From: Lachnospiraceae bacterium
GTDB taxonomy: Bacteria; Bacillota; Clostridia; Lachnospirales; Lachnospiraceae
Length of the DNA: 64,000 nucleotides
Assembly (NCBI GenBank): GCA_910575255.1
Contig: CAJTEM010000009.1
Span: forward strand, 62,001 to 126,000
Reading direction: 5' to 3'
A model generated the notes under the pieces. It searched no databases and was not told the origin of the DNA. It was given only the letters and a program-made list of their open reading frames with translations. Shown piece after piece: positions 2,803 to 17,348 of the stretch (the stretch's first letter is position 1; every line of letters starts with the position of its first letter). Both the position numbers and the translations under genes were made by a program.

Positions 2803-2968
2803 CTAGTATAACCCGTTTTAAATACCTTTCTGTTTCGGCAAGGATACTTTTCCGAGAGTGCAGAGGGAAAAGCGGAGGCGTAGTGGGGCTACGTTGAGCA
2901 TTTTCCCTCTGTGCTATCGGGAAAGCAGACTGGCGAAACGGAAGGTTATTTAAAACGGGTTATACTAG
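2803..2968. repeat. 166-bp imperfect palindrome (REP/MITE-like)
   Basis: The outer arms begin CTAGTATAACCCGTTTTAAA and are mirrored at the other end. The arms continue inwards with imperfect pairing (ACCTTTCTGTTTCGGC against GCGAAACGGAAGGTT, and GCAGAGGGAAAA against TTTTCCCTCTGTGC) to a small inner hairpin, CGTAGTGGGGCTACG. Its right end covers the TAG stop codon of the signal-peptidase-like gene. No transposase is nearby. It could be a miniature inverted-repeat element or a chromosomal palindrome, and it may act as that gene's 3' hairpin. Confidence 0.75.
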
Positions 2969-3429
2969 ACCTTCCAGACCACCTTTCCCACTATCTGCTC
3001 CGCTGATACACACCCCACTGCCACTGCGCGGCTGTCTGCCGATTCCTGACGGTTATCCCCTATGACAAACCAGCTCTCCTCCGGCACCTCATAAAGCATC
3101 CGGATATCGCATTCTCCCAGGCTCAACTCCTTTACATACGGCTCCTCTAACGGCGTCCCGTTGACGGATACCACACCGTTTTCGTCAATCTCCACCCGTT
3201 CCCCCGGTAACACTGTCACCCGTTTCACCAGGATCTTATTGTTATAATAAAATGCCGCAATATCTCCTCTTTGGAAACGTGTGCTCTTTATGGCGACCAC
3301 GGTATCCCCGCTCTCCAGCCCCGGCTCCATACTGTACCCGTAAATCTTCAGGACAGCCACGCTATGGTAACAAACCGGCTGGCTGCCTTTTTCCCGCAGC
3401 TGCTCTCCTGTCTTTCTCCGCCGGCACAC
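2965..3429 (-). CDS. S26 signal peptidase I-like protein lacking a membrane anchor
   Basis: This 154-aa protein has the type I signal peptidase Ser/Lys dyad: Ser33 in GYSMEP and Lys69 in ILVKRV. It also has the downstream GDNRQESADSR box (124-134). Known enzymes of the family act outside the membrane and are held by one or two N-terminal transmembrane helices. Here the first 30 residues are short and charged (MCRRRKTGEQLREKG...) and contain no convincing helix. The GTG start has a perfect AGGAGG six bases upstream, so missing the true start is unlikely. It may be a specialised peptidase or rely on a partner. The stop codon lies inside a 166-bp palindrome. Confidence 0.85.
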   Translation of the reverse strand: MCRRRKTGEQLREKGSQPVCYHSVAVLKIYGYSMEPGLESGDTVVAIKSTRFQRGDIAAFYYNNKILVKRVTVLPGERVEIDENGVVSVNGTPLEEPYVKELSLGECDIRMLYEVPEESWFVIGDNRQESADSRAVAVGCVSAEQIVGKVVWKV

Positions 3430-3638: not shown

Positions 3639-3679
3639 CATAACAGAAGCATGATTTTGACTTTGCAGAGATTTAGAAG

Positions 3680-3792
3680 TCCTTGAATTTCTGAGTTTTG
3701 CGTTGAAACGAAAATTCACACTGTCTGAGCGGAGCAAGTTTGTGAATTTTCGTTTCGTTCTTAGCAAAAATCAGAAATTTTAGGAATTCTTG
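3680..3792. repeat. Long intergenic inverted repeat
   Basis: In the gene-free stretch 3430-3957, arms with the core CGAAAATTCACA and TGTGAATTTTCG pair around CTGTCTGAGCGGAGCAAGTT. Weaker pairing extends outward (GAATTTCTGA...TCAGAAATT) to about 113 bp. No protein is encoded. The remainder of the gap is AT-rich, apart from a promoter-like element at 3610 and a dispersed-repeat copy from 3796. Confidence 0.7.
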
Positions 3793-3795
3793 ATC

Positions 3796-3952
3796 TCGAA
3801 ACCGGAAAAAGCAGCAAACCCTTTCCGATGGCTGCTCTCCCCATTTCCCTGGCGTACCTTTCAGAAACGCTTAACTTACTGACATTGTTTCACAAGGTTG
3901 GCTCTTTCAATGTCGGAAGGTGTCAGCTCTCGGGACCCAACCTCTGAAAAGT
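3796..3952. repeat. Dispersed GGTACGCC mosaic repeat, copy A
   Basis: Read on the minus strand this begins GGTACGCCAGGGAAATGGGG and continues GAGAGCAGCCATCGGAAAGGG, closely matching the copy at 51592-51851. On the + strand it ends with the shared TTCAGAAACGCTTAACTTACTGACATT block. It lies just downstream of the TPM-domain gene that ends at 3958. Confidence 0.7.
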
Positions 3953-3957
3953 AATGC

Positions 3958-4935
3958 TTAAAATTTACGCCCTCCTCCCCCATGTACCCGGCCGCTTCCC
4001 GATGTATGGGTCGTGCTTCTTACGGAGCTCCTGCCCCCGGCGCTTCTTACGGATGTGGTTCTGGGAATCATCTGACGCGTCACATGGGAATCTTTCAGTT
4101 CGTCCCTCTGATCCCGGAATCGGAAGGCCGCATCCGCACGATAGGAGAGATAATAGCCTGACGCCATTTTCTGTTCCTTCTCCATCCGGTAATCCCGTCT
4201 CACCTTCCGGCACACGCTCCCTGCGCAAAAAGCTGACACTGCAAGGGCCAGCAATGCTTCATACCAGCGGATACTCCGCTTCGGCTTCTCCTGATAATAA
4301 TCGATCTCGCCTGTGTCCCGATCCTGATTGTACTGATTATGCCCGATCCCCTGCTCGTAGTATTCCCGGGTATCCTCAAGCAGTTGCTTTGCGCATCCTA
4401 CAAAGTCTCCTGCACCCAGCCTGGATATTCCCCGATCCAGCATACGATCTATCCGCTCATCTGTCAAAAGCCGAATCGCCTTCAAATAAGTAGAAATATA
4501 CAACTCCCGGTTATCCATATCGATCAGATAGAGAATACCTCCCGAATCCCCATCCGCCCCGAACCCGTTCTCATCGAAGAAGTCATCGGCATACTGTTCT
4601 GCTGTTTTTCCTTGTGCGTCTTCGGTCGTTACCAGGACCACATCCATCCCGGTCTCTTCCCACATGGCAGACAGCTCGCTCTCCAGCTCCTCTTCCTCCG
4701 TATCCGAAAACAGTCCGGCCCGATCGTACACCCGCTGCCTCACATCATCCTTAACGGCTGCCCACACCGGAAGCTCCCCCGTCAACCGTGCAAAAGCTGC
4801 TCCTGCGCCGGGAAATGCTCCGGTAATCAGCGCCAGCAGTCCGGCCGCCAGCAAAACCGCCGCTGCTGCTCTCCAAGCCCAAACCTCTCTGTTTCCTTCC
4901 CTGCCCATGCCTTTTCCTCTAATCACCACACTCAT
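3958..4935 (-). CDS. TPM-domain membrane protein (YdjH-like)
   Basis: This 325-aa protein starts with a cytoplasmic stub and a transmembrane helix (about 18-40). An extracytoplasmic TPM domain follows (about 62-200; DRAGLFSDTEEEELES, GILYLIDMDNRELYIST). A second helix (about 225-242) leads to a basic tail ending in a Gly/His-rich segment. TPM domains occur in photosystem repair proteins and in Bacillus YdjH. The frame is open upstream to 5151, but that would run deep into the preceding gene; ATG 4935 lies 14 bases after its stop. It is the last gene of the eight-gene operon and sits directly after YdjI- and YdjG-like genes, which supports a membrane-stress role. Confidence 0.85.
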   Translation of the reverse strand: MSVVIRGKGMGREGNREVWAWRAAAAVLLAAGLLALITGAFPGAGAAFARLTGELPVWAAVKDDVRQRVYDRAGLFSDTEEEELESELSAMWEETGMDVVLVTTEDAQGKTAEQYADDFFDENGFGADGDSGGILYLIDMDNRELYISTYLKAIRLLTDERIDRMLDRGISRLGAGDFVGCAKQLLEDTREYYEQGIGHNQYNQDRDTGEIDYYQEKPKRSIRWYEALLALAVSAFCAGSVCRKVRRDYRMEKEQKMASGYYLSYRADAAFRFRDQRDELKDSHVTRQMIPRTTSVRSAGGRSSVRSTTHTSGSGRVHGGGGRKF

Positions 4936-4949
4936 CCTGCACCTGCCCG

Positions 4950-6014
4950 CTATATCCAATATCCTATCACCAGCAGAACCGCCAGCAGCGGCAGAAAGCA
5001 TGTCAGAAACAATCCTGCCAGCTTTCCCGGATCTACCGGCAATTCCCCGCAGACCTTTCCTGTCTGTCCGTTGCAGGCAAAATAGTAGATCTTCTCCGTC
5101 TTCGGATCCCGATAGGTCATGGTCCATACCGGCATCAGCACGTACTGCCACTGCGGGCTGACGATTCTGGTCTCCTTTTTATGGTACTGCACAGAATCAT
5201 ATCCTCTGACGCAGCTGCGCAGAGACTGTTCCGCAAACGCACAGACCTCCTCCTGGATCTCTCTGGAAAACAGCTGCTTTTCCCTGTCACGTTTTTCCGC
5301 CAGAAAGCCGGACAGATACCCCATACGAAACGGCTCCATCCGATTTGGCTCAAAAGGCATCACTCCCTCGGCCAGCTTCCCGTTCGTCTTTGAAAGTGCA
5401 TTACGTGCGACGTGACGGATCTCCATGGTTCCGCTGCGATTGACGGCATAGCTCTCAATACGGGCAAAACGCACATTCCCCTGGGTCCAGGACTGCTGCT
5501 TTTTTCCCTCTGCCTCCAGTTCTCCTTCCACCTGGCAGTCGTAAAGCCAGTAAGGAAAATACACCCCTGTCATTTTCTCCAATTGATCCGGAGCATAAAA
5601 GGCCCTGGGCAGATACTTCTTTCCCGCAATCCACTGTTCGAAAATTTCCAGCGCCTTTGTGCGGTCAATCGCAAAGGGAATCACCCCATCCGGCCGATAC
5701 TCCCCCTGCATTCTTCCCGCCAATACTACCGGGTTATGACAGTAATAGCAGAAAGTCGCGGCCGTAGTCTCATCTGTCACGATCTCAGCCCCGCAGCTGG
5801 GGCAGGAATATACCATTGCCGCACCCTCAGCCTGACCGCCGGAATCAGCGTTCTCCTCTTCGGTTCGCGCTCCAAAAGCCCCGTCTTCGGATGCTGCTTC
5901 CATCTGCACCCGGGAGAATTCCGACAGACAATATTCACACTGAAACATCTGCTTTTCAGGAGCAAACCGCAGATCTCCACCGCAATTCGGACATTTGAAT
6001 ATAATCGCTGACAT
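4950..6014 (-). CDS. Double zinc-ribbon protein with C-terminal membrane helix (YdjG-like)
   Basis: This 354-aa protein carries two CxxC/CxxC zinc ribbons: Cys8, 11, 26, 29 (FKCPNCGG...CEYC) and Cys71, 74, 89, 92 (CPSCGAE...CYYC). A large soluble domain follows with WLYDCQVEGE and PQWQYVLMPVWTMTYRD. The last roughly 22 residues are hydrophobic and should form a C-terminal anchor. Bacillus YdjG has a similar plan and works with YdjH and YdjI on the membrane. ATG 6014 was chosen because an AGGAG precedes it and it starts eight bases after the SPFH gene. It is the seventh gene of the operon. Zinc binding follows from the motifs; its partners are inferred from order. Confidence 0.85.
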   Translation of the reverse strand: MSAIIFKCPNCGGDLRFAPEKQMFQCEYCLSEFSRVQMEAASEDGAFGARTEEENADSGGQAEGAAMVYSCPSCGAEIVTDETTAATFCYYCHNPVVLAGRMQGEYRPDGVIPFAIDRTKALEIFEQWIAGKKYLPRAFYAPDQLEKMTGVYFPYWLYDCQVEGELEAEGKKQQSWTQGNVRFARIESYAVNRSGTMEIRHVARNALSKTNGKLAEGVMPFEPNRMEPFRMGYLSGFLAEKRDREKQLFSREIQEEVCAFAEQSLRSCVRGYDSVQYHKKETRIVSPQWQYVLMPVWTMTYRDPKTEKIYYFACNGQTGKVCGELPVDPGKLAGLFLTCFLPLLAVLLVIGYWI

Positions 6015-6022
6015 GTCTGCTC

Positions 6023-7330
6023 CTACTCCTTCGGATTGCCGCACTCACTGCAGAACCTTCCCGTATTCACAGCACCGCACCGACATACCCAGGTAGAATC
6101 GTCTGGTTTCGGACTGCCGCACTCACTGCAGAATTTCCCTGTGTTGTGGGCGCCGCATTTACAGACCCAGGCTTCCTTTTCGGGCCTTGGGCTGCCGCAT
6201 TCACTGCAGAACTTTCCTGTATTGCCGGCCCCGCACCGGCACACCCAGACGCCGCCGGCAGAAGCTCTGCCCATTCTGGTGCCGCCGGATGTATTGCCGC
6301 CCCTGGCCGCGCCGCCGGCATTTCCTCCCAGGCCGGCCTGAGCATTCATCTGCTGCATATTCGCCGCTGATGCCACGCCCATAAAGCCGCCCCCGGCATT
6401 CATCCCGGCTCCCATTCCCATGAACCCTGCCATCGCGCCATTCCTGTTGGAACCTGCCGCCTCAAGTCCACGGGCAATCGCCCCCTGCACATAGCCTTCA
6501 CGCACATTGGGATCTCCCAGCATTGCACCCTGATTGCGCATATTGATCAGCTTCTGGGACTCCGCATCATAAGAAATGCTGGCAAGCCCCACGCTCATCA
6601 CCTCAAAGCCCCGCTCCCGTTTCCATTCCTCATCAAGTACCTCCGACATATGGCGGCTCAGCACCGTTCCCTTGGATACCACGAAGGAAATCCGCTCTCC
6701 CTCTGCTGACATCCGGTTAATAGAAGCCTGCAGCGCCTCCAGAAATTCGTTCATATACTGCTCATTAATGGAACCGATCTCCACATGACTCACATTTTTC
6801 GGAATCACCTGCGCATAAAAGAGCAGGGGATCCGTAATCCGGATCGAATATGTGCCATGTGCACGCAGAAACAACTCGGCATTGTAAAAATTATCAAAAT
6901 AGTTAACCGGATTGCGTGTGCCGAATTTGATCCCCTTAATTTCCTGCAAATTTACATAAAACACCTTCTGGGCAGTCGGTGTTCCGCCGCCAAAGCGGAT
7001 ACGGTTAAAGGATTCCCTCAAGGAGTCTCTGAACTGACCGTTGAACAGAGACGGAAGTGAAGAATTCTTCACCGTATAATATCCCTCTTCCGCCGTATAG
7101 TCCACAACCTTTCCTCCGTCCACAATCATCATAAACTGATTGGGATAGACATGGATCACCGACCCGTCGGATACTGTATTGTCCGTCCCCTTGGTATTGG
7201 ATCCCTTCCGTATTCTTACTCCGCTGGCAAACACGGTCTGATCCCCCATGTTCCCCGGCTCCATCACCTCCAGCCACTGATCTGCCAAAGCGCCGCCGAC
7301 CGCTGTTGCTGCTGCTTTTATAATTCCCAT
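6023..7330 (-). CDS. SPFH/Band-7 protein with three tandem C-terminal zinc ribbons (YdjI-like)
   Basis: This 435-aa protein has an N-terminal SPFH-like domain of the YdjI branch (about 25-290; FMMIVDGGKVVDY, GTYSIRITDPLLFYAQ, EWKRERGFEVMSVGLASIS). A Gly/Ala/Met-rich linker follows. The end carries three near-identical ribbons of about 24 residues, each WVC(R/K)CGAxNTGxFCSECGxP. SPFH proteins oligomerise on membranes; YdjI in Bacillus recruits PspA-type proteins. GAGGAG precedes the ATG, 29 bases after the permease stop, which keeps it in the two-component/ABC operon. The triple ribbon is the unusual part, since single or double ribbons are more typical. Confidence 0.88.
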   Translation of the reverse strand: MGIIKAAATAVGGALADQWLEVMEPGNMGDQTVFASGVRIRKGSNTKGTDNTVSDGSVIHVYPNQFMMIVDGGKVVDYTAEEGYYTVKNSSLPSLFNGQFRDSLRESFNRIRFGGGTPTAQKVFYVNLQEIKGIKFGTRNPVNYFDNFYNAELFLRAHGTYSIRITDPLLFYAQVIPKNVSHVEIGSINEQYMNEFLEALQASINRMSAEGERISFVVSKGTVLSRHMSEVLDEEWKRERGFEVMSVGLASISYDAESQKLINMRNQGAMLGDPNVREGYVQGAIARGLEAAGSNRNGAMAGFMGMGAGMNAGGGFMGVASAANMQQMNAQAGLGGNAGGAARGGNTSGGTRMGRASAGGVWVCRCGAGNTGKFCSECGSPRPEKEAWVCKCGAHNTGKFCSECGSPKPDDSTWVCRCGAVNTGRFCSECGNPKE

Positions 7331-7359
7331 GCTTATACTCCTCCTCTATGATCTTGATC

Positions 7360-8265
7360 TTATTTATGAAATCTTTTCCCCGGCCGAATCGCCCGGACCG
7401 CTACCCAGACCAATGCTGCTGCCATGATAATCTGAATCACCACACTGCTGCTCACCCAGTTCCTGCTCAGAAAGCTCTCCCCATGGGTGCCAAACCATTG
7501 AGTGACTCTTCCCTCAGCCGCCTCTCTTCCAGAAAGCCTCAGCATCGTCATCACAAAGGTGGCTGTCGGATTCAGAAGCAACAGATACAAAAATCCTCCC
7601 GAGCTTCCCTCGCCTGTCCCCATACCGGCTGAGACAAGATATGCTCCCCCGGGCATCCGGCTGAAAAACAATGCCAGCTGATTCACCGCGTACGTCCCGA
7701 TCACAATCCCCCCCAGCACAGCATAAGCAACCACTGTGGACAACGTAGATCTCCGAAAAAGAGCGGAGCAGCACACACCGATACTGCCTGCAAACAGCGC
7801 TGCTGCCCCGTAGCAGAGCAGAAGCATCCCCATATCCTTTATCGTAACCCCGCCATAGACAAATACCAGTGCCAGTATCGGAAAGCTGGAAACAATGAGC
7901 AGAGCCATTGTGCTCATCGAAGCCATCAGCTTTCCCATAACGATCTGCATGGGTGTCATCTTTGTAGAAAGCATCAGATCCAACGTCTGCCGTTCCCTTT
8001 CCCCACTGATGCTGCCCGCCGTGATAGCCGGCATGATAAACACCAGCATCACAAATTCCAGCACCGCCACAAACAGATACAGATCCAGAAAACTGCTATA
8101 CTGGATCTCTGCCGTCACCCGAACCTGTGTCAGCATGGAATACATATTAAGAAGCGCCACCAGGGCCAGAATCCCGTTGAAGATCAGCAGCACCAGAGCC
8201 AGCCTAAAGCTGCGTGAACTGACCCGGATCTCTCTTTTATAAACCGGATTCGTCATCAGCGTCAT
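7360..8265 (-). CDS. ABC-2 type transporter permease
   Basis: This protein of about 301 aa has six likely membrane helices. A conserved cytoplasmic loop (ITAGSISGERERQTLDLML) is typical of ABC-2 exporters of the NatB/GldF type. It overlaps the end of the ATPase gene by about 29 bases, so the two should be translated together. ATG 8265 was preferred to an upstream candidate lying deeper in the ATPase; ATG 8256 is also possible. With the ATPase and the 850-aa protein it probably forms a three-part envelope transporter. The cargo is unknown. Confidence 0.88.
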   Translation of the reverse strand: MTLMTNPVYKREIRVSSRSFRLALVLLIFNGILALVALLNMYSMLTQVRVTAEIQYSSFLDLYLFVAVLEFVMLVFIMPAITAGSISGERERQTLDLMLSTKMTPMQIVMGKLMASMSTMALLIVSSFPILALVFVYGGVTIKDMGMLLLCYGAAALFAGSIGVCCSALFRRSTLSTVVAYAVLGGIVIGTYAVNQLALFFSRMPGGAYLVSAGMGTGEGSSGGFLYLLLLNPTATFVMTMLRLSGREAAEGRVTQWFGTHGESFLSRNWVSSSVVIQIIMAAALVWVAVRAIRPGKRFHK

Positions 8266-9205
8266 AAGACAATACCACCCTTTCCTCTTCACGTCTGGTA
8301 AGCTGCATGAATACCGCCTCCAGGCTTCCCGGCTCCCGCATAAAGCCGCGGACGTGTACCCCTGACTGTACCAGCTCTGTCAAAAGCTGACTTTCCTGCC
8401 TGCCGCTTCCGGAAAACTGCACCAGAATCTCCTGCTCCTTTACGGAGATTGAACGAACCAGCGGATGTTCCTTCAGCAAGCTCAATGCTGTCTGGATGTT
8501 ATCGCAGACCGTGATAACAATCGGCTTGGATGTATGGATCTTCTCGATAATCTCCTCCACGCTTCCGGTCAGCAGCATCCTCCCCCCATCGATGATTCCC
8601 ACATCGGTACACAGCTCCGTCAGATCTGTCAAGAGATGCGAACTCAGCAAGATCGTCATTCCCTGCTGATTCAGCTCCCGTACCGTCTCCCGGAATTCCA
8701 GACGGGTTCTCGGATCCAGCCCTGCGGCCGGTTCGTCCATCACCAGCAGCACCGGCTCATGCAGCAATGCCCGCGCCAGGCTCAGCCGCTGCTTCATCCC
8801 CCGAGAAAGTCCGTCCACATAAAAATCCAGCTTATCTCCAAGCCCCACCTGTTCCAGAAGGGTCTGGGAACGTTTCCTTGCCGTGAGTCCTTCCATGCCA
8901 TAACACGACGCGAAAAATTCCATATATTCCGATACCTTCAGATTGTCATAGACTCCGAAATAGTCCGGGACATAGCCGATCTTTTCCTTCAACCGGTACG
9001 GTTGCGCCAGAGCATCAATACCGTCAATCTCCACGTCTCCGGCATCCGGCATCAGCAACCCGCTGATAATCTTGATCGTCGTCGTCTTGCCTGCTCCGTT
9101 CGGCCCCACAAACCCGTACAAAGCTCCTTCCTCAATCTCCATATCCAGTCCGTCCAGGGCATGGTAATTCCCATACAACTTGCGCAGATTCCGTATCTTC
9201 AGCAT
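8237..9205 (-). CDS. ABC transporter ATP-binding protein
   Basis: This 322-aa ATPase has Walker A GPNGAGKTT (34-42), a signature LSRGMKQR (133-140), Walker B VLLVMDEP (152-159) and an H-loop in LLSSHLLTDL. A C-terminal extension of about 90 residues resembles those of ABC-2 exporters. Its ATG shares bases with the stop of the 850-aa gene (TAATG), a sign of translational coupling. It energises the permease encoded next. Similar ABC-2 pairs export lipids, antibiotics or gliding-machine parts, and nothing here fixes the substrate. Confidence 0.93.
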   Translation of the reverse strand: MLKIRNLRKLYGNYHALDGLDMEIEEGALYGFVGPNGAGKTTTIKIISGLLMPDAGDVEIDGIDALAQPYRLKEKIGYVPDYFGVYDNLKVSEYMEFFASCYGMEGLTARKRSQTLLEQVGLGDKLDFYVDGLSRGMKQRLSLARALLHEPVLLVMDEPAAGLDPRTRLEFRETVRELNQQGMTILLSSHLLTDLTELCTDVGIIDGGRMLLTGSVEEIIEKIHTSKPIVITVCDNIQTALSLLKEHPLVRSISVKEQEILVQFSGSGRQESQLLTELVQSGVHVRGFMREPGSLEAVFMQLTRREEERVVLSYDADDESGL

Positions 9206-11757
9206 TACCGCTCCCTCCCTGCTACCATCGGCATCGGAAGCTGAACTGCCCGATAGCTTCCCGGTCCGTCATAAACATAGCGCACAGTCAATGTATTTCC
9301 CGGTGACAGGTATGGCTGCAGCTGCTCCCTGTGCATGGTCTGTCCGTCCATCTCAATCAGATCAAAGTTACCGCTCCTGTGATTATAAAAGTATACGCTT
9401 CCGCTGAATGCCTCAATATAGCTTCCGCTCCTCTTCCCCAGAAATTCTCCTGACACCGGCTCAAAGGTCAGGCTCTCCACATCAATCTCTGTTCCCATCT
9501 GGTATTCCAGTGTCAAAGGCTCCATCCCGTTCATGGAATTGGAATTCGGAAAATAGTTCCCATTGATCACTCTCGGCGTTTTAATCAATACAGAGCGGTA
9601 CAGCATCCGGTCATGCGAGGTGTTCACCGGCACCTGTGAGGTCAGCATCATATGTCCGTACGTCTCCGGATTTGCCTCCTGCAAAAACAGGCTTTCCTCC
9701 TTCTCTGTGCTGAAGGCAATCACTCTTGCGTCCGCACTGTAATTGCTCATATAATTATCCAGATAAAAGGTCAGGATATTCGAGCGCTCCAAAGCCAGCA
9801 GATAGGCCGTATCCCCGATATCCGCCCGCCTCAGAAGCTCCTCTCCGATAATCTGCTCAGCCACCATATAAGAATTATTCAGAGGAAAACGCAACAGCTC
9901 TAATTCTTCCAGACGGCAGCTTTCTCCCGGCTCAAGGCGCCCTAAAAGCACCATGTTCCCGTAAAGCAAAAAGGTAACATTCTCCAGGGGAAACGGGAAG
10001 CAATTCGTGATGCTCCCGCTTAAATTCCCTTCAAAATAATCTACTGTCCCAGTGATTCCGATCCCATCTATATTATCCGACTTGCGCTCCAGCTGAAAAT
10101 ACCTCGGGGTAAAGGCCGAGATATTCGTCCCCCGGATAGCAAGCCGCTCCTCTCCCCGTTCAATCACCACCTGGTACGGCTCCTGACCGGTAAGGACGGT
10201 TTTGTTCCCGGATCCTTGCTGATAGCTGCGCGTGATCGGCAGCACCGAATACGACGGATTCAGCTCGACCCGGTAGGGACGGTTATAAGGATTGCGGATA
10301 TTCACATATGTGGTATCTGTCACATAATCCCCCGTCACATCCTGAATCGTTGCATACGTATAGAACACAGACCGGAAGCGGGTCGTAGTTCCCATCCAGT
10401 AAACGATGACAGCAAATACCAAAGACAGCACCATCACTCCCCGCCGATACCAGATCTGTGCATCCCGCTTTTTCAAAAACAGGTACATCCCCGGCCCCAG
10501 TACCACCAGATACACGGTCACAACCGTTGCATACAGAGGAAGATTCGGCAGCTTTTCCACATTTCCCGTATTGATCAGGCTTTGCACGGACCAGAATTTC
10601 TCCGAGTTGCCGCTGTAGACCACATCTGCCAGACGATTGATCCGGCTCTCCCCCAGCAGAGAGGAAAAAAAGTGATCCACATATGAAGGATTGTTCTGAC
10701 AAAAGGAACGGATCTCGGCCAGGTCAAACCCGGCCACCCCGATCAGCCCCTGCTCCTTGGCAGCCGCTGTCAGCAGGGGAAATCCCCCGCTGGAAAGGAT
10801 CACATTGCCGCCGTGAAGCGGAATATCCACGCAGGTAAGCTCCATCATCCCGTCACCTGGCTGGCTCAGCGCAAAGTCCTCGCTCAGATTCACCGGCCGC
10901 AGGGCAGGGGTGGCATAAGAATCATCCAGAAGCTCGGGTGCAAATCTTCCCAGGGTATCCCCCACCCGCTCTCCGGTCCCCAGCAGCAGCACCCCGCCAC
11001 TGTGAACCCAGTCCATGATCGCAGAGGTCTGTTCCTCGGACAAATCCCGCAGCTTAAAATTATTCACCACCAGCACATCCAGCAGATCCAGCCCCACCTG
11101 TTCTTTGGGAAACTCCTCCGGATCCAGGCTGAAGGTGCGTGTCCTCACAGCACTGTAATTGATGCCAATCCCGTTTAAATAATCCAGACCGTCCAGATCA
11201 TCCGACAGGACTCCGATGAACAGCTCCGGCACATCCCGGCTGACGTCCAGATCCAGAAGACGGCTGGCCAGCACCTCCCCGCTTTTGTCCTTCAGCTCCA
11301 AAAAAAGCTGGCTGGCATCCGTTCCGATGGGAATATGATACCGCTCTGACTGCTCCCCAAACGGCTCCAGTGCCACATCGTAGTCATAACAGTAAATGCT
11401 CCCATCCGATTCCATGGATTTGATCCGCAGCACCATTTCCTCTTCCAATGACCTCTGGTTCCGAATCGTGACACTCACTGGAATGCACCGCCCGCCTTTG
11501 GCAGAATCCTCATAGCCATAGCTCACAATCAGGCTTACCGGCTGCTGTTCCGGCATCCCTGCACTGGTCTCGCTGTCCTCACTGGCCGCTCCCGACAGCA
11601 AACCGCCCTCACTGCCTGCCGTTGCCGGTAAAGGCGCACACAAAATCAGGCTGCCGGATACCAGAAAAGCCGCCAGCACACGATTCCTTACTTTTCCGAC
11701 TGAAAAATGCCGTCTCACTTGTGATATATTATCCAAAATTCTCTCTCTCAATATCAA
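9205..11757 (-). CDS. Large exported membrane protein of an ABC-2 system, function unknown
   Basis: This protein of about 850 aa has an N-terminal signal-like helix (27-47) and an Ig-like beta domain (about 72-172). An alpha/beta domain like the GATase-like part of GldG/DUF4350 proteins follows (about 178-365; LLDVLVVNNF, VHSGGVLLLGTG). Two membrane helices (406-428, 438-456) and a 390-residue beta-rich C-terminus complete it. It lies between a sensor kinase and an ABC ATPase and overlaps or abuts both. The start is uncertain: the frame opens at a TTG (11757) inside the kinase gene and TTG 11736 is another choice. It probably serves as the periplasm-facing subunit of the exporter or as a stress-sensing partner. 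Confidence 0.75.
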   Translation of the reverse strand: MILRERILDNISQVRRHFSVGKVRNRVLAAFLVSGSLILCAPLPATAGSEGGLLSGAASEDSETSAGMPEQQPVSLIVSYGYEDSAKGGRCIPVSVTIRNQRSLEEEMVLRIKSMESDGSIYCYDYDVALEPFGEQSERYHIPIGTDASQLFLELKDKSGEVLASRLLDLDVSRDVPELFIGVLSDDLDGLDYLNGIGINYSAVRTRTFSLDPEEFPKEQVGLDLLDVLVVNNFKLRDLSEEQTSAIMDWVHSGGVLLLGTGERVGDTLGRFAPELLDDSYATPALRPVNLSEDFALSQPGDGMMELTCVDIPLHGGNVILSSGGFPLLTAAAKEQGLIGVAGFDLAEIRSFCQNNPSYVDHFFSSLLGESRINRLADVVYSGNSEKFWSVQSLINTGNVEKLPNLPLYATVVTVYLVVLGPGMYLFLKKRDAQIWYRRGVMVLSLVFAVIVYWMGTTTRFRSVFYTYATIQDVTGDYVTDTTYVNIRNPYNRPYRVELNPSYSVLPITRSYQQGSGNKTVLTGQEPYQVVIERGEERLAIRGTNISAFTPRYFQLERKSDNIDGIGITGTVDYFEGNLSGSITNCFPFPLENVTFLLYGNMVLLGRLEPGESCRLEELELLRFPLNNSYMVAEQIIGEELLRRADIGDTAYLLALERSNILTFYLDNYMSNYSADARVIAFSTEKEESLFLQEANPETYGHMMLTSQVPVNTSHDRMLYRSVLIKTPRVINGNYFPNSNSMNGMEPLTLEYQMGTEIDVESLTFEPVSGEFLGKRSGSYIEAFSGSVYFYNHRSGNFDLIEMDGQTMHREQLQPYLSPGNTLTVRYVYDGPGSYRAVQLPMPMVAGRER

Positions 11758-12868
11758 AATCCACCTTCAGTGTCACGGTAAATACCGTCCCGTTGAGATC
11801 ACTTTTTACGGTAATATCCCCGCCGTGCATATCTACAATATTTTTTACAATCGCCAGCCCCAGCCCTGTTCCTCCGGTATGCGTGGAGCGGGACTGCTCC
11901 ACCCGGTAAAACTTATCAAAGATCAGCGGCAGCTCCTCCGCCGGAATCACGTACCCATAATTCGTCACGGATACCTGTACCGTCTCCGCAGCTGCATGGA
12001 CCTTCACCAGAATCCGCTTTCCCTCTGCTCCATACTTGATCGCATTGTTAATCAGATTATCAAACAGCCTCGCCAGCAGATTCCCGTCCGCCAGGATCAC
12101 CTTGGCAGGCACATTGCTCTGCAGTTCATAGGACAGGCCCTTATTGGAAAAATTCGGATAAGACTCCTCCAGAAGCTGTCCCAGCAGCTTGATAATATCC
12201 ACCTTTGTCACCCGCATCGAGATCCTGCCGTAATTCAGCTTTGTGAACCCGAACAGATCCTCGATCAGTTTCTCCAGACGCTTCGACTTACTGTACGCGA
12301 TATCAATATACTTTGTCTGCATCTCCGGTGTCAGCGGCGCCGACTTGCCGGAGAGAATCTCCAGATACCCGATAATGGAGGTAAGCGGTGTACGCAGGTC
12401 ATGGGCTACATTTGTGATCAGCTCATTCTTGGTCCGCTCCGCCTCGCGCTCCTTATCCATCAGCTGGCGGATCTCCTCCACCATCTTATTGAGATTCGCC
12501 GCCATAGCCGAGAATTCATCGTCACCGACCACCTCAATCGTCGTGTTTAAATCTCCCTCCGAGATATCCCGGACAGCATCCGATATCTTCCCGATATATG
12601 CCATCGACCGTTCCTGCAGCAGCAGAAAAGTCACAGAGAATACCATGATCCCCAGCATCACATATCCCAGCACAATGACCGTATCCGAATCATAGATCAG
12701 CCCCATCAATGCATTGTTCCACTGCGATTCCCTCGCGTACCGCGCCAGCATCCCCAGATTCGTCACCAGGAATACCTCCACCAGGCAGGACACCAGCGCA
12801 CTGTACAGAATATTGACGATTACCCGGGTGCGGAAACGATACTGCATATCGTTCTTTTTATTTTTCAA
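11729..12868 (-). CDS. Sensor histidine kinase (VanS/BceS-like)
   Basis: This 379-aa kinase has two membrane helices (about 16-40 and 64-86) around a short extracellular loop. A HAMP domain follows (about 88-140), then a HisKA domain with phospho-acceptor His156 in NVAHDLRTPLTS. The catalytic domain has N-box DNLINNAIKYG and G-boxes around FYRVEQSRSTHTGGTGLGLAIV. The tiny loop argues for sensing within the membrane or through a partner such as the adjacent ABC system. It overlaps the response regulator by 11 bases. The VanS-like label is by resemblance; no vancomycin-resistance enzymes are present. Confidence 0.93.
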   Translation of the reverse strand: MKNKKNDMQYRFRTRVIVNILYSALVSCLVEVFLVTNLGMLARYARESQWNNALMGLIYDSDTVIVLGYVMLGIMVFSVTFLLLQERSMAYIGKISDAVRDISEGDLNTTIEVVGDDEFSAMAANLNKMVEEIRQLMDKEREAERTKNELITNVAHDLRTPLTSIIGYLEILSGKSAPLTPEMQTKYIDIAYSKSKRLEKLIEDLFGFTKLNYGRISMRVTKVDIIKLLGQLLEESYPNFSNKGLSYELQSNVPAKVILADGNLLARLFDNLINNAIKYGAEGKRILVKVHAAAETVQVSVTNYGYVIPAEELPLIFDKFYRVEQSRSTHTGGTGLGLAIVKNIVDMHGGDITVKSDLNGTVFTVTLKVDFDIERENFG

Positions 12869-13562
12869 TTTTGTATCCTACCCCCCACACGGTAGTGATA
12901 ATCTTATCCTGACGCTCATCCTCCTTCATCTTACCGCGCAGCCGGCGGATATGTACCATAACCGTATTATTCGCCTCATAGACCTTCTCATTCCACACCT
13001 TCTCGAAAATCTCATCCGTGCTGAACACCTTTCCCGGGTTGGATGCCAGAAGATACAGAATGTCGAATTCAATGGGGGTCAGCTTCACTTCCTCGTCATA
13101 CACCGTAACCTTGTGGTTATCCTTATTGATCGTCAGTCCGCGGATACTGATCTCATTTCTCACATTTTCATGGACATTGCTGTTGGGGTTCAGCTGGGTA
13201 TAGCGCCGCAGCTGTGATTTGACACGGGCCGACACCTCCAGAGGATTGAACGGCTTGGCCACATAGTCATCCGCTCCCGTCCCCAGCCCCAGTATCTTAT
13301 CCAAATCCGTAGACTTGGCGCTGATCATGATAATCGGAATGTTGTTCGTCTCGCGGATCTTCTTACACATCTCCAGCCCGCTCATCCCCGGCATCATAAT
13401 ATCCAGAAGCACCAGGTGAATGTCCTCCTTATCCAGAATATCCAGCCCGTCCTGCGCATTATCCGCCTTAAACACTTTATATCCGTCACTGACCAGGTAG
13501 ATCTCCACCAGATCCGCTATCTCCTGCTCATCATCTACAATCAAAATATTGGTCTCTGCCAT
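12858..13562 (-). CDS. OmpR/PhoB-family response regulator (VanR-like)
   Basis: This 234-aa protein has a receiver domain with acidic residues Asp10-Asp11, phospho-acceptor Asp54 (LLDIMMPGMSG) and the conserved Lys in YVAKPFNP. A winged-helix DNA-binding domain follows (about 133-232; LTPIEFDILYLLASNPGKVF, VMVHIRRLRGK). It heads the eight-gene operon, with AGGAGGAGGCGACC upstream of the ATG. It most likely activates its own operon when the kinase senses envelope damage. No clear sigma-A promoter was found ahead of it, which would fit activator dependence. Confidence 0.93.
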   Translation of the reverse strand: MAETNILIVDDEQEIADLVEIYLVSDGYKVFKADNAQDGLDILDKEDIHLVLLDIMMPGMSGLEMCKKIRETNNIPIIMISAKSTDLDKILGLGTGADDYVAKPFNPLEVSARVKSQLRRYTQLNPNSNVHENVRNEISIRGLTINKDNHKVTVYDEEVKLTPIEFDILYLLASNPGKVFSTDEIFEKVWNEKVYEANNTVMVHIRRLRGKMKEDERQDKIITTVWGVGYKIEK

Positions 13563-13672
13563 AATGGTCGCCTCCTCCTGATATGCTATGATAAGTGTAA
13601 CATAAAATGTCGGTTTGTGCCTTACTTTTTTATTACAAATATTCCACGATTTTCCATGACGGCCTTTGCTGC

Positions 13673-13730
13673 AAAAAGCGGCAGAACCGCCCTTCCAGCT
13701 ATCCGCCGGTACCGGTAAGTTCTGCCGCCT
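13673..13730 (-). terminator. Intrinsic terminator of the surface-protein locus
   Basis: On the minus strand GGCGGCAGAACT pairs with GGTTCTGCCGC, followed by TTTTTGC. It lies downstream of the LPKTG anchor at 13763 and ahead of the two-component operon. Confidence 0.8.
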
Positions 13731-13762
13731 TTTCCCCTTACTATCTGTTAAATTACTGCTTT

Positions 13763-16700
13763 TTAATTCTCTTCCCGTTTCTTCAGCCCGAAAGCTGCTG
13801 CCAGCATCCCGATTCCGGCACCTCCAAACACCAACATCAGGGCTGCCAGATGACGGGCGTCTCCGGTTTTGGGAAGCAGGGAAGCCAATGGCACTTCTTC
13901 CTCAATCAGAATGTTATCCGGATCGATCTCTGTAAAGTTCGTAAGCGGTTCCTTTCTCGGATTGGGCTTCCCCATTGATATAGATTTCCTTTGCCCCGCT
14001 GAGGCTTTCCGAAATCATATAATTCATGGCCCCTGGAATCCCTGTCAGCAGAACAGACTCTCCTGCCGCCAGATCCACCTCTGCCGTTCCGCTGTTTCCG
14101 TTTCCTTTTACAAACGTCAGCTGTTCCTCTTCGGTTGTTCCGTCCCGTTTCGTCCGCACTATCTGAAGTGTCTGATCTCCAATATCGCTTAGCTGAATGG
14201 TAAAATGGAATGTGGAATCCCGCAGATCCCCCGGATCCCGTTCTACCTGTTTTTCCAGCTTCAGGTTATACTGTGGAGTATTCTTAACCTTCCAGGAATA
14301 GCTGGTCCTGATGGTCGCGCCGTCCTGGTATACATTGACAGCCGGCTCGCCAATTTCGCTCAGATAACCGTTTTCAACTTCACGGATGCCATAAATATAG
14401 GTTTCCCCGTTTTGGGATACTTTCGGAAGCCCCTTGACGGATGCTTTCCATCCGTCCTTCTCTGTGAGCCGGACAAAGCCTACCTTCTCCTGATTTGCCG
14501 GTTCCTGGCCTTCAACGCCTCTTAAGATCTCCATGTCTACTTCCGGTTTTTGGTAGTCATAGCTGACTTTTTCCCATATCTTTTCGATATCAATATCAAC
14601 CAGTTCCCCGGTCTCACTGCCGATGATTACATTACCATTGGTGCCGATGCCGCCACCCTGGGTCCAGGCTTCGTTATTTTGAATCTTCACCAGGAAATCA
14701 TCCTCGGAAGCGGTGATATTATTTGCTGTAGCCTCTGTAAACGCGGCCAGCTGATCACCATAAACCAGTTTAATCCCATTTAGCGGAAGTTCCCTGCCGC
14801 TGCTGTCCTTCCAGTGATATGCCCCGCCTCCTAACATGAAGGGAGAGATCTTTATACTGGGATGGCCCTGGTAACTCCCATAATTTCCACTCTTGATATA
14901 GAGATCCGATATTCCCGAACTCTTTACCGGCTTGTTATCATAAATCGCCGCACCGTCCGTAACATGGATTGTTACCTTGGATGTGGGACAGGCAGCAAGC
15001 GCCTTTCCACTTCCTGAACGGGAGGTATTCTCCCGAATCGCCACATTTTTCAGAAACAAAACGCCGTTTTCATAGTTACCTTTCCCTCCATTGACATAGA
15101 TACCGCCGCCGAAGTATCCGCCCTGACTGGTATTCTCCTCAATGGTTCCTCTGTTAATCGTGGCAACACACTTACTCTGAACGAATATTCCGCCGCCGCT
15201 CTCCTCGGAAATATTTCCCCGGATCGCTCCGCCTTCCATGGTGAACTGCGGTTTGTGATTGCTTGAACTGATAAAAGCATTGCTGCCATTGGCAAGGGAA
15301 ATACCGCCGCCATGATATGCCGTATTTCCAGAGACTGTTCCGCCTTCCATGATCATCTGTCCGGTCCTGGCAATCAGAACGCCGCCCCCTGCACTGGGAT
15401 AATGTTTGGCAGAATCCTTACCCGTTGCCGTATTGTTCCTGATTTCTCCGTCGCTGAGAATAAATGTACCGCTGTTGACGAACACACCGCCGCCCACATA
15501 TGCCTGATTGCCGGCAATGGTTCCTCCGTTCATCTGCACGGTGCCTTCGCTGTAAACTGCACCTCCGTAATTCACTGCGCTGCTGAGATTATTCGTGGTG
15601 TTCTTATTGTTCTGTAAAACAGTTCCGTCCTCTATATTGCAGACACCGCCTTTGACTACAACCAACGGTGCAGCAGCAGATATTCCTACACTGTAAGCGC
15701 CGTCTATGGTGATGTTTTTCAGAGTAAGCGCACCCTTTGCGTTTACCTGCACCAACGCCCCGGCGGTATAAGTAGGATAGCGCATCAGTCTCTGGCCTTC
15801 CTTCAGTTCCCATTCCTGTTCATTATCTATGGCAACTGTGCCAACCACATATATCTTGTTCCATCCGTACTCTTCCAGAAGTTCTTTTGCCCGTGCAAAG
15901 GTCTTTACCTTGTTCGCTGACGTCTTTCCGTCCTTTGCATCATTTCCGCTTCCTGCCAGATATACCCCGTCCGTGCTTTCTTTGCGCAGAACAACGTTAT
16001 TCCCCTCTGTCTCAATGACCGCAAAATTCTTTTTATCACTGAAGACAACGGATATATTTTCTTTAACTGTTGCCAGATAGTCGCTGCTCTCGCCCTGGAT
16101 TAAGGTCACGTCTCCCTGGCTTCCTTGCTGTATAGCCACGCTGCTGTACAAGATTTCATCCGCCCGGAAGCCGTCCTTAACTTTGAGGATATGACTGGGT
16201 TTGGATTCCGAGAAGCCATGTATCGTCAATTTCCCCACTTCATTGTGAAGGACATTTTCCTGCATATTCACGGCATAATTTATGCCAAGTTCTTTTATCT
16301 TTCCCTCGGCCTTGAGCGTTCCCTTTTGACGAATCAAAAGCCTATCCAGTTCGGCCTCAGGACTGACCGTAACCGTTCCTTCATTTACAACAGGAATATA
16401 GGCGTCTTGGGTGGTTGCGATATTTTCGGTTTGGACATAAATCCTTACATTGCCGTCTAAGGACAGTTCGGCTCCCTTTAACACCTGAATCCGCCCAAAA
16501 ATATCCCCATCTCCCTTCAGAGTAAGTTTACAGCCTTTACCCACTTTGAACAAACGGTTCAGGTCCGTCGTTGTTTTTATCGACGCCCCATTCATCCGAA
16601 TGGTAATATTTTTGTTGAGAGTTGTCTCCTGCTCCAGCAAAACTGCATTATCCAGACCTTCATATTTCTGGGGAACCAAATCAATCATCCCGCCATTGCC

Positions 16701-17348
16701 TGCCTTTTGCAATGCCTCTTTGAGAGTGGAAAAGCCTTCATCCCCCACTTTTGCTACTATCTCTCTGTCATCATAGACAATCGCTTTATATTTCCCGTCT
16801 GATGACTTCACGCCTTCTAAGCCGCCGGTTTCCACCTTATTGCTGATCTTGGAAACATCGATCCAGCGGTAATCGGCAAAATAACCGGCATCTGTCACTT
16901 CCGGATCGTACATCTGTGCAGCCGGCAGTACTCTGGCTGCTTTGCTTGCTCTAATCAGCAAATCCTGGGCGCTGGTAAATTTATTTTTTTCATCTTCATT
17001 GGTGTTGCCGTACAAAGCGCCGGAATTCAATGCAAAAAGAGCGCCGCTGCTGTATACTCCGCCGGCACTTTCCGAACTTAGCTGCGCCGTTGAGATATTG
17101 CTCTTGATAATCGTATGGTTCAGTTCCATACTGCCCGTATTATAAATTGCACCCGCATAGTCGCTTGTATTTCCCTGAATGACTGTTGCCTTTTGTGCCT
17201 CTTTTGTGCCTGCTTCGGTCTCATCCGATATATTGGCCTTGACCGCGCCTCCGTTCAGAATGGCTCCCGCGCCTCTTGCCCGGTTGTTTTCAATCCTGCC
17301 GCCTTTTATCGTTAAAGACGTCCCCAAATTTACACCAAATCCTGCGTA
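13763..17348 (-). pseudogene. Decayed LPXTG-anchored beta-helix surface protein
   Basis: A 1137-aa frame from TTG 17327 encodes many parallel beta-helix turns of the pattern GGxxxxNxGTFxLxxGxIxxNxA. A Cna-B-like domain (VDIDIEKIWEK...) and a second SpaA-like domain follow. There is no signal peptide, and an in-frame TAA lies at 17351-17349 just before the open stretch, so the N-terminus is lost. At the other end the frame stops at 13914, while the anchor (LPKTG, hydrophobic span, KKREEN) sits in the +1 frame at 13763-13975. Removing one G from the GGGG tract at 13970-13973 would join them. Intact relatives are sortase-anchored adhesins. A sequencing error could explain the frameshift but not the missing signal sequence. 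Confidence 0.8.

What the first reader, a model, noticed from the sequence alone, without database searches (positions are those of the whole stretch)
3958..13562. Eight-gene operon joining a two-component system, an ABC exporter and a YdjGHI-like membrane-stress trio
All eight genes run on the minus strand with overlaps or gaps of at most 29 bases: response regulator, kinase, 850-aa envelope protein, ATPase, permease, SPFH, double zinc ribbon, TPM. In Bacillus the YdjG/H/I set works with PspA, but no PspA is seen here. Placing that set under its own VanRS-like system with an ABC exporter suggests a self-contained envelope-damage sensing and repair module. The kinase has almost no extracellular loop, so the exporter or the 850-aa protein may do the sensing.
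Basis: partly seen in the sequence, partly recalled or inferred. Interest (0 to 1): 0.72.

Follow-up and report, generated by a model that had tools for sequence, protein, structure and literature searches.

The report
Envelope transporter operon with accessory trio
A gut bacterium carries one block of eight genes that joins a sensor pair, a three-part membrane transporter complex and three membrane-maintenance proteins; relatives suggest that sensor and transporter form a steady unit with its own predicted switch, while the three extra proteins are a frequent but removable add-on that usually lives without its usual partner PspA.

Summary
The eight genes are real, co-directional and tightly packed (window 3958-13562, minus strand). 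They are two pieces.

(1) A steady core, RR-HK-E850-ATPase-permease: E850 is in 24 of 24 genus genomes, the five genes in 22 of 23 genus relatives read (the other is cut by a contig edge). A predicted VanR/PhoB-like direct-repeat box (13618-13639) precedes RR, recurs before RR in relatives and has one exact copy in the genome.

(2) The SPFH/zinc-ribbon/TPM trio is an appendage. SPFH follows the core in 46 of 53 named loci (biased sample) and 10 of 21 genus relatives; four genus genomes carry it elsewhere without the box.

PspA is absent. Over 150 genomes of the family, YdjI-type SPFH and PspA tend to avoid each other (7 of 62 against 36 of 88).

Outside the family E850-ATPase-permease is followed by MoxR in 17 of 18 loci read, with no two-component system in view.

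Best reading: a GldAFG-like envelope complex with its own sensor pair and an optional PspA-free Ydj trio. Function, signal and RR binding are untested.

The parts
13673..13733 (-). intrinsic-terminator-like hairpin between the upstream adhesin gene and the operon (ends approximate)
   Evidence: fold of 13640-13790: z -4.28, 0 of 200 shuffles as stable; sequence
13618..13639 (-). predicted RR-binding box TTTGTAATAAAAAAGTAAGGCA, two half-sites 11 bp apart near the -35 position
   Evidence: 1 match, 0 expected in the window; the only 0-mismatch site in the own genome; recurs before RR in relatives
13594..13599 (-). -10-like element TACACT preceded by TATGT (extended -10 type)
   Evidence: similar element at similar spacing after the box in relatives; sequence
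12858..13562 (-). OmpR/PhoB-type response regulator, VanR-like
   Evidence: Pfam PF00072, PF00486; NCBIfam best vanR_ACDEGLN 318 bits, cut-off 350
11729..12868 (-). histidine kinase, two TM helices, about 29-residue external loop, HAMP, VanS-like
   Evidence: Pfam; NCBIfam VanS 289.5 bits, cut-off 400; hydropathy and loop conservation
9205..11757 (-). E850: predicted signal peptide, outside N-terminal part with DUF4350-like stretch, two TM helices near 405-458, outside C-terminal half (topology from hydropathy)
   Evidence: no family for the window protein at 0.01; DUF4350 in 37 of 42 homologues at E up to 1, best 1.5e-5, window protein 0.057; hydropathy
8237..9205 (-). ABC ATPase, DrrA/GldA-like
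   Evidence: PF00005; TIGR01188 drrA 3.8e-73 and TIGR03522 GldA 1.8e-63, both under cut-off
7360..8292 (-). ABC-2 permease, GldF-like
   Evidence: PF12698/PF12679 over cut-off; TIGR03518 GldF 5.1e-8, under cut-off
6023..7330 (-). YdjI-type SPFH protein with three C-terminal CxC..CxxC zinc ribbons, no TM helix
   Evidence: PF13421; ribbon count and hydropathy
4950..6044 (-). YdjG-like: two N-terminal zinc ribbons, one C-terminal TM helix (342-360)
   Evidence: sub-cut-off zinc-ribbon matches; cysteine pairs in the translation; TM
3958..4935 (-). YdjH-like TPM protein (start inferred at ATG 4935; the longest ORF starts at 5151)
   Evidence: PF04536 8.9e-27; only TPM domain found in the genome; start sequence

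Best explanation
The operon is a GldAFG-like ABC-2 envelope complex (ATPase, permease, membrane-anchored E850) with its own two-component system and, in this lineage, a PspA-free YdjGHI-like trio. Proposed working: E850 and the permease form the outside-facing part. The kinase, with a short unconserved external loop, reads the state of the transporter/E850 complex through the membrane, as BceS is proposed to read BceAB. The phosphorylated RR binds the direct-repeat box near -35 and raises its own operon, a closed loop that matches the complex to demand. Read-through also raises the SPFH, zinc-ribbon and TPM proteins, which form a membrane-associated chaperone-like scaffold, possibly doing the job that MoxR-DUF58-BatA does for the same ABC/E850 set in other Clostridia. 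Shown here by sequence: gene order, recurrence of the box, its rarity in the genome, steadiness of the core, optional trio, MoxR context of relatives outside the family. Inferred: binding of RR to the box, signal path, complex formation, stress function, substitution for MoxR and its direction.
For: E850 in 24 of 24 genus genomes; in 23 of 23 genus relatives read HK, ATPase and permease adjoin E850, and RR is present in 22, the other being cut by a contig edge. In 57 named loci RR 57, HK 57, permease 55, ATPase 54. RR-HK overlap is exactly 11 nt in 55 of 55 named, 20 of 22 genus and 13 of 17 family-sample pairs. Box before RR with score at least 18: 50 of 55 named, 22 of 22 genus, 9 of 17 family-sample loci. 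In the own genome one exact site; all sites with up to 3 mismatches are 8 against 13 for the reversed control. The Lacrimispora half-site fits the published VanR consensus (T/C)CGTANGAAA(T/A)T (PMC4405338, passages seen) at 11 of 12 positions, the window's at 9 of 12. Outside the family, of 18 loci with downstream sequence: ATPase and permease 18, a ~540-aa membrane protein 18, MoxR 17, BatA 13, DUF58 12 (Pfam identification on one locus); RR/HK 0 of 19 among the up to six upstream genes in view. One branch (SH-aLRT 100, quick tree) separates the 67 family rows with a kinase from the 19 rows from outside the family. No DUF58 in the own genome.
Against: No fold could be predicted, and E850 against PF09822 (GldG-like) proteins gave only 13% probability. 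Two of nine further family loci read with short flanks (L025, L026) have other ORFs instead of a kinase before E850, so the pair is not universal in the family. The box is weak or not found in 8 of 17 family-sample loci. Two weaker box-like sites exist in the own genome (scores 28.3 and 21.9 against 36.8); no genome-wide profile scan was run. The box is missing before relocated trios, so control of the trio by this RR is not essential. 17 of 49 linked loci have a promoter-like site before SPFH. No expression data. The ABC-2 permease is not of the BceB kind, so the Bce analogy is functional only. The tree label 'MoxR' was given to all 19 outside rows, including L219 (contig ends) and L235 (MoxR not detected).
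Confidence: 0.5

Rival explanations
1. The trio is a passenger: an independent PspA-free Ydj cassette that lies behind the core because of an old insertion, with its own promoter and no functional tie to the ABC/E850 complex.
For: Not beside the core in 11 of 21 genus loci with downstream sequence. Promoter-like sites before SPFH in 17 of 49 linked loci, mononucleotide-shuffle mean 3.8. SPFH of any kind and E850 do not co-occur more than chance in 150 family genomes (22 of 62 against 29 of 88). Nine close SPFH loci without the core keep the trio.
Against: The high-identity SPFH subfamily does co-occur with E850 (12 of 17 against 39 of 133). Linkage is seen in many diverged lineages, also with an inserted nfo-like gene (nfo-like gene after the permease in 23 of 53). 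The window has a 29-nt gap without promoter- or terminator-like site.
Confidence: 0.35
2. A Bce-like antimicrobial sensing and detoxification module: the transporter removes a wall-active peptide and signals to the kinase.
For: Short-loop kinase, adjacent ABC transporter, VanRS-like pair, predicted autoregulatory box; flux sensing is the proposed mechanism of BceAB-S (PMC10314905, passages seen).
Against: The permease is ABC2/GldF-like, not BceB-like (recalled family difference); outside the family the same transporter stands with MoxR-DUF58-BatA and no kinase in view.
Confidence: 0.2
3. A secretion or surface-assembly system in the sense of the predicted archaeal arCOG01314/DUF4350-MoxR-vWA complex, with the two-component system adjusting its level; not a stress response.
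For: DUF4350 signal in 37 of 42 E850 homologues; MoxR and vWA context in relatives; that archaeal complex is predicted to be a secretion system and DUF4350 to be GldG-like (PMC5898192, section 3.2 read).
Against: No cargo gene stands out as constantly linked in the neighbourhoods printed; YdjGHI in Bacillus serves PspA recruitment and membrane fluidity (PMC8581546, abstract and passages seen).
Confidence: 0.25
4. A phosphate or polyphosphate regulated unit: the RR is of PhoB type and ppx-ppk stand upstream in many relatives.
For: ppk upstream in 39 of 50 named loci with enough sequence; identities confirmed by Pfam on one locus.
Against: In the window's genome ppk lies on another contig without a strong box (best 10.2); the best RR match is VanR, PhoB scores lower.
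Confidence: 0.08

Closest known systems
Bacillus subtilis pspA-ydjGHI operon
   Same: Same three domain types: Band-7/SPFH with C-terminal zinc ribbon, two zinc ribbons plus TM, TPM domain (domain description in PMC11237479, passages seen)
   Different: No PspA; order SPFH-zinc ribbon-TPM instead of G-H-I (order from PMC8581546, passages); placed behind a two-component system and ABC complex. Sigma-W control was not tested
MoxR-DUF58-BatA(vWA) operons led by E850-ATPase-permease in other Clostridia
   Same: Same three leading genes in the same order, mostly with short overlaps
   Different: Here a two-component system precedes and a Ydj trio follows; MoxR, DUF58 and BatA are not in the operon, and DUF58 is not in the genome (MoxR and BatA were not searched genome-wide)
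GldA-GldF-GldG gliding/secretion ABC complex and archaeal arCOG01314 (DUF4350) systems
   Same: ATPase scores well to GldA (after DrrA) and the permease best to GldF; E850 homologues have a weak DUF4350 match and an anchored outside-facing layout
   Different: All scores under the curated cut-offs; E850 has two TM helices mid-protein and a large C-terminal half; gliding genes were not searched
Bce modules (BceRS-BceAB)
   Same: Short-loop kinase and adjacent ABC transporter under predicted autoregulation
   Different: ABC-2 permease rather than BceB type; about 29-residue loop; extra anchored subunit E850
VanRS vancomycin regulators
   Same: Best NCBIfam match of both RR and HK; half-site resembles the VanR consensus
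   Different: Both under the curated cut-offs; no van resistance gene in the operon

Membership tests
YdjGHI-type trio | SPFH (Band_7_1) with C-terminal zinc ribbon | tested here: met
   PF13421 4.7e-14; three CxC..CxxC ribbons
YdjGHI-type trio | TPM-domain membrane protein adjacent | tested here: met
   PF04536 8.9e-27, two TM stretches
YdjGHI-type trio | two zinc ribbons plus TM | tested here: inconclusive
   zinc-ribbon models only under cut-off; cysteine pairs and one TM visible
YdjGHI-type trio | PspA in operon or genome | tested here: not met
   0 PspA in G000
YdjGHI-type trio | direct sequence orthology to Bacillus YdjG/H/I | not tested
   Bacillus sequences were not fetched
Bce module | intramembrane-sensing kinase with short loop | tested here: inconclusive
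   loop about 29 residues; identity 0.23-0.46 over residues 41-70 in 55 rows
Bce module | BceB-type permease with large extracellular domain | tested here: not met
   ABC-2 permease of 310 aa, PF12698/PF12679; the BceB definition is recalled and from the start of the PMC3023708 abstract
VanRS | score over curated VanR/VanS cut-offs | tested here: not met
   318 against 350 and 289.5 against 400 bits
VanRS | direct-repeat RR sites of VanR type before its promoter | tested here: inconclusive
   9 of 12 (window) and 11 of 12 (Lacrimispora) matches to the published consensus; no binding data
GldAFG-like ABC complex | GldG/ABC_transp_aux (PF09822) subunit | tested here: not met
   PF09822 not among the matches of the window protein; own genome has no PF09822 match; hhalign probability 13% with 7 such proteins, expected region aligned
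DUF4350 family | score over the Pfam cut-off | tested here: not met
   window protein 14.1 bits against 30.4; 37 of 42 homologues match at E up to 1, best 1.5e-5
MoxR-DUF58-BatA operon | MoxR, DUF58 and BatA downstream of the ABC genes | tested here: not met
   not in the window operon; no DUF58 in the genome; present in relatives outside the family

The most novel reading that the evidence does not exclude
E850-ATPase-permease is a conserved clostridial envelope machine, related to the predicted archaeal DUF4350-MoxR-vWA complex, whose partner has been exchanged: MoxR-DUF58-BatA in other Clostridia, a two-component system plus a PspA-independent SPFH-zinc-ribbon-TPM scaffold in one Lachnospiraceae lineage. 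If so, this is a third type of kinase-coupled ABC envelope-stress module beside Bce and Lia, and SPFH/TPM can replace both PspA and MoxR.
Probability: 0.3. Interest if true: 0.72.

Novelty: new variant of a known kind. Interest (0 to 1): 0.5.

Why it matters
It ties three poorly understood envelope systems together by gene order: GldG/DUF4350-type ABC complexes, MoxR-vWA systems and the PspA partner set YdjGHI. It gives a predicted promoter and regulator that can be tested in culturable species such as Lacrimispora. The avoidance of PspA and YdjI-type SPFH in this family suggests that the trio has a function of its own, not only as PspA's membrane anchor.

Tried and rejected
Rejected: (a) that the linkage is a chance neighbourhood of this genome: it recurs in many genera. 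(b) That the box marks a wide regulon: sites with up to 3 mismatches in the own genome are no commoner than the reversed control. Of those 8 sites, the best beside the operon's own scores 28.3 (C2) and lies inside an ORF of the other strand (L166); another fetched stretch holds a 21.9 site (L165) that was not followed. The rest of the genome was not scanned with the profile. (c) That relocated trios keep the box: best scores 6.4-8.4 in L273-L276 against 36.8 for the window's site. Among the 11 distant SPFH loci L147-L157 the best scores are 18.5 and 15.2, not placed directly before SPFH. (d) A PDB relative of E850: only chance-level hits (E 0.54 and 1.3). (e) A terminator right after TPM: the fold of 3830-3965 is no better than shuffles, so the 3' end of the transcript is open. 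(f) NCBIfam for E850: only chance-level hits.

Caveats: the 57 named loci were found with a query alignment in which 4 of 5 sequences were trio-linked, so 46 of 53 is biased upward. Less biased: SPFH beside the core in 7 of 20 family loci read (9 of 20 if loci with the zinc-ribbon gene but no SPFH count; two of the 20 end at the contig edge), and in 10 of 21 genus loci (up to three genes between in one). Of 50 other E850-positive family genomes, 20 were read at full neighbourhood and 9 with short flanks (6 of these 9 show a kinase before E850, two show other ORFs, one shows none in view). Outside the family, 19 of 38 positive genomes were read, from 8 of 11 families. The box profile was built from 15 distinct sites of the first loci, so scores on these are partly circular; the genus loci are a fairer but close test. 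L072 counts as a box failure although one search shows a 36.9 site upstream of its RR. Gene order was called by longest ORFs and BLAST to the window proteins, so starts and some gaps are approximate; the box value printed for L265 is left over from the previous row and was not used. The Fisher tests ignore phylogeny, though each genome is a different genus; for the close SPFH subfamily alone the avoidance of PspA is not significant (2 of 17 against 41 of 133, p = 0.15), and E850 genomes have PspA rather more often than others (20 of 51 against 23 of 99, p = 0.056). The family name Lachnospiraceae is inferred from named records among the matches. The literature searches listed no paper that I recognised as describing this operon; the library holds open-licence papers only, and of PMC11237479, which treats PspA-free contexts, I saw passages only.
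Full report
What is there. The minus strand of the window holds eight co-directional genes at 3958-13562: response regulator, histidine kinase, an 850-aa protein (here E850), ABC ATPase, ABC-2 permease, SPFH, zinc ribbon, TPM. Pfam confirms six of them above cut-off; the zinc ribbons match only under cut-off, and E850 matches no family at 0.01. The longest TPM ORF starts inside its neighbour; the ATG at 4935 is the likelier start (sequence). By hydropathy E850 has an N-terminal signal stretch and two helices near 405-458, so both its large halves should lie outside; the kinase has two helices and an external loop of about 29 residues that is poorly conserved in 55 rows.

Promoter. Just before RR lies TTTGTAATAAAAAAGTAAGGCA (13618-13639), two half-sites 11 bp apart, followed by a -10-like TATGTTACACT. 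The pattern with up to 3 mismatches occurs once in the window with none expected. In the own genome it is the only exact site; 8 sites with up to 3 mismatches against 13 for the reversed control suggests that the others are noise, though one of them scores 28.3 with the profile against 36.8 for the operon's own. A similar arrangement stands before RR in relatives: score at least 18 in 50 of 55 named loci and 22 of 22 genus loci with enough sequence, but only in 9 of 17 loci of the more diverse family sample. The half-site resembles the published VanR consensus (PMC4405338, passages; comparison). Upstream, a strong hairpin separates the adhesin gene. So the operon probably starts here and the RR probably feeds back on it; binding itself is inferred.

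The core is steady. E850 is found in 51 of 150 sampled genera of the family, the window's genome included, and in 24 of 24 genomes of the window's genus. In 23 of 23 genus relatives HK, ATPase and permease adjoin it; RR is seen in 22, the other being a contig edge. In 57 named loci RR and HK are present in 57, permease in 55, ATPase in 54, with an 11-nt RR/HK overlap in 55 of 55 pairs. In these loci RR is 84-100% identical to the window's while E850 is 38-70%. Not every family member fits: L025 and L026, read with short flanks, have other ORFs before E850.

The trio is optional. SPFH follows the core in 46 of 53 named loci with enough sequence (45 with all three genes; biased query, see caveats), in 7 of 20 family loci and in 10 of 21 genus loci. 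The closest relative of all, L249 (E850 78%), has it; the closest named ones, L051 and L103, do not have it there. In the genus, 14 of 23 relatives have a close SPFH (75-87% identity): 10 beside the core, 4 on another contig, two of these four being the genomes of L051 and L103; the four have no box. Nine other close SPFH loci without the core all carry SPFH, zinc ribbon and TPM together, and none has a box scoring over 11. On the E850 tree the trio label needs 9 changes inside the kinase-bearing clade, with deep rows lacking it: one gain and several losses is the simplest story, but is not shown. In 17 of 49 distinct linked loci a promoter-like site lies directly before SPFH (mononucleotide-shuffle mean 3.8, largest 10); none was called there in the window. 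In 23 of 53 named loci an AP-endonuclease-like gene follows the permease, before SPFH where that is present (Pfam on one).

PspA. The own genome has none. Of 150 family genomes 43 have PspA over cut-off. Of the 62 with a YdjI-type SPFH at E up to 1e-30 7 have PspA, against 36 of the 88 without (Fisher p = 9e-5; phylogeny ignored); in those 7 the two genes lie on different contigs or, in G046, megabases apart. For the close subfamily alone the trend is not significant (2 of 17 against 41 of 133). Of the 8 sampled genomes with a linked trio one (G046) has PspA over cut-off, and G019 has a match under it. In Bacillus, YdjI with YdjG/H is required to bring PspA to the membrane (PMC8581546, abstract and passages). 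Here the trio is kept without that client, so it probably has another role.

Where the core comes from. With a profile of E850, 40 of 291 class genomes match, in eleven families besides the own. Of the 38 from outside the family 19 were read; none of the 19 shows a kinase or regulator among the up to six upstream genes in view. In the 18 with downstream sequence ATPase and permease follow in 18, then a ~540-aa membrane protein in 18, MoxR in 17, BatA in 13, DUF58 in 12 (Pfam identification on L226). One branch (SH-aLRT 100, quick tree, long branches present) separates these rows from the kinase-bearing family rows. The own genome has no DUF58. E850 homologues match DUF4350 weakly (37 of 42 at E up to 1, best 1.5e-5). 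Makarova and colleagues (authors' names recalled) described DUF4350 proteins as GldG-like and, with MoxR-type and vWA genes, as a predicted archaeal secretion or membrane-remodelling complex (PMC5898192, section 3.2). A direct profile comparison with 7 PF09822 proteins aligned the expected stretch but at 13% probability, so GldG kinship is a lead, not a result.

How it most likely works. The nearest mechanistic model is the Bce module, in which a kinase without a sensing domain is proposed to read the cycling of its ABC transporter and to raise its expression (PMC10314905, passages). Kinase topology, steady adjacency and the self-box fit this. The permease type does not, so the system may work like a Bce module but is not a member. 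The trio would be co-induced by read-through as a membrane scaffold. Stress type, substrate and signal are unknown.

Verdict. It is a new variant of known kinds, with the MoxR-against-two-component contexts and the PspA-free trio as the most interesting parts.

Noticed in passing
window 13914-17327 (-): 1137-aa repetitive surface protein with Cna_B and DUF7601 domains immediately upstream, where many relatives have ppx-ppk.
   Followed up: partly
L032 1607-5347; L277 (own genome contig C38): Exopolyphosphatase and polyphosphate kinase: ppk stands upstream of the RR in 39 of 50 named loci; in the window's genome ppk lies on another contig, next to ppx.
   Followed up: partly
L032 11945-12853 and others: An AP-endonuclease-family (nfo-like) gene follows the permease, before SPFH where that is present, in 23 of 53 named loci (Pfam on one).
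   Followed up: partly
window 3668-3797: Nested imperfect palindrome (34-nt arms, 82%, enclosing 16-nt perfect arms) in the gap after TPM; may be a small repeat element.
   Followed up: no
window 2965-3429 (-): Signal peptidase I-like gene 528 nt downstream of TPM on the same strand.
   Followed up: no
150 genomes of the window's family: YdjI-type SPFH and PspA avoid each other (7 of 62 against 36 of 88).
   Followed up: partly
L268: One genus relative shows a MoxR-like ORF (37% to L226's) shortly after SPFH and the zinc ribbon.
   Followed up: no
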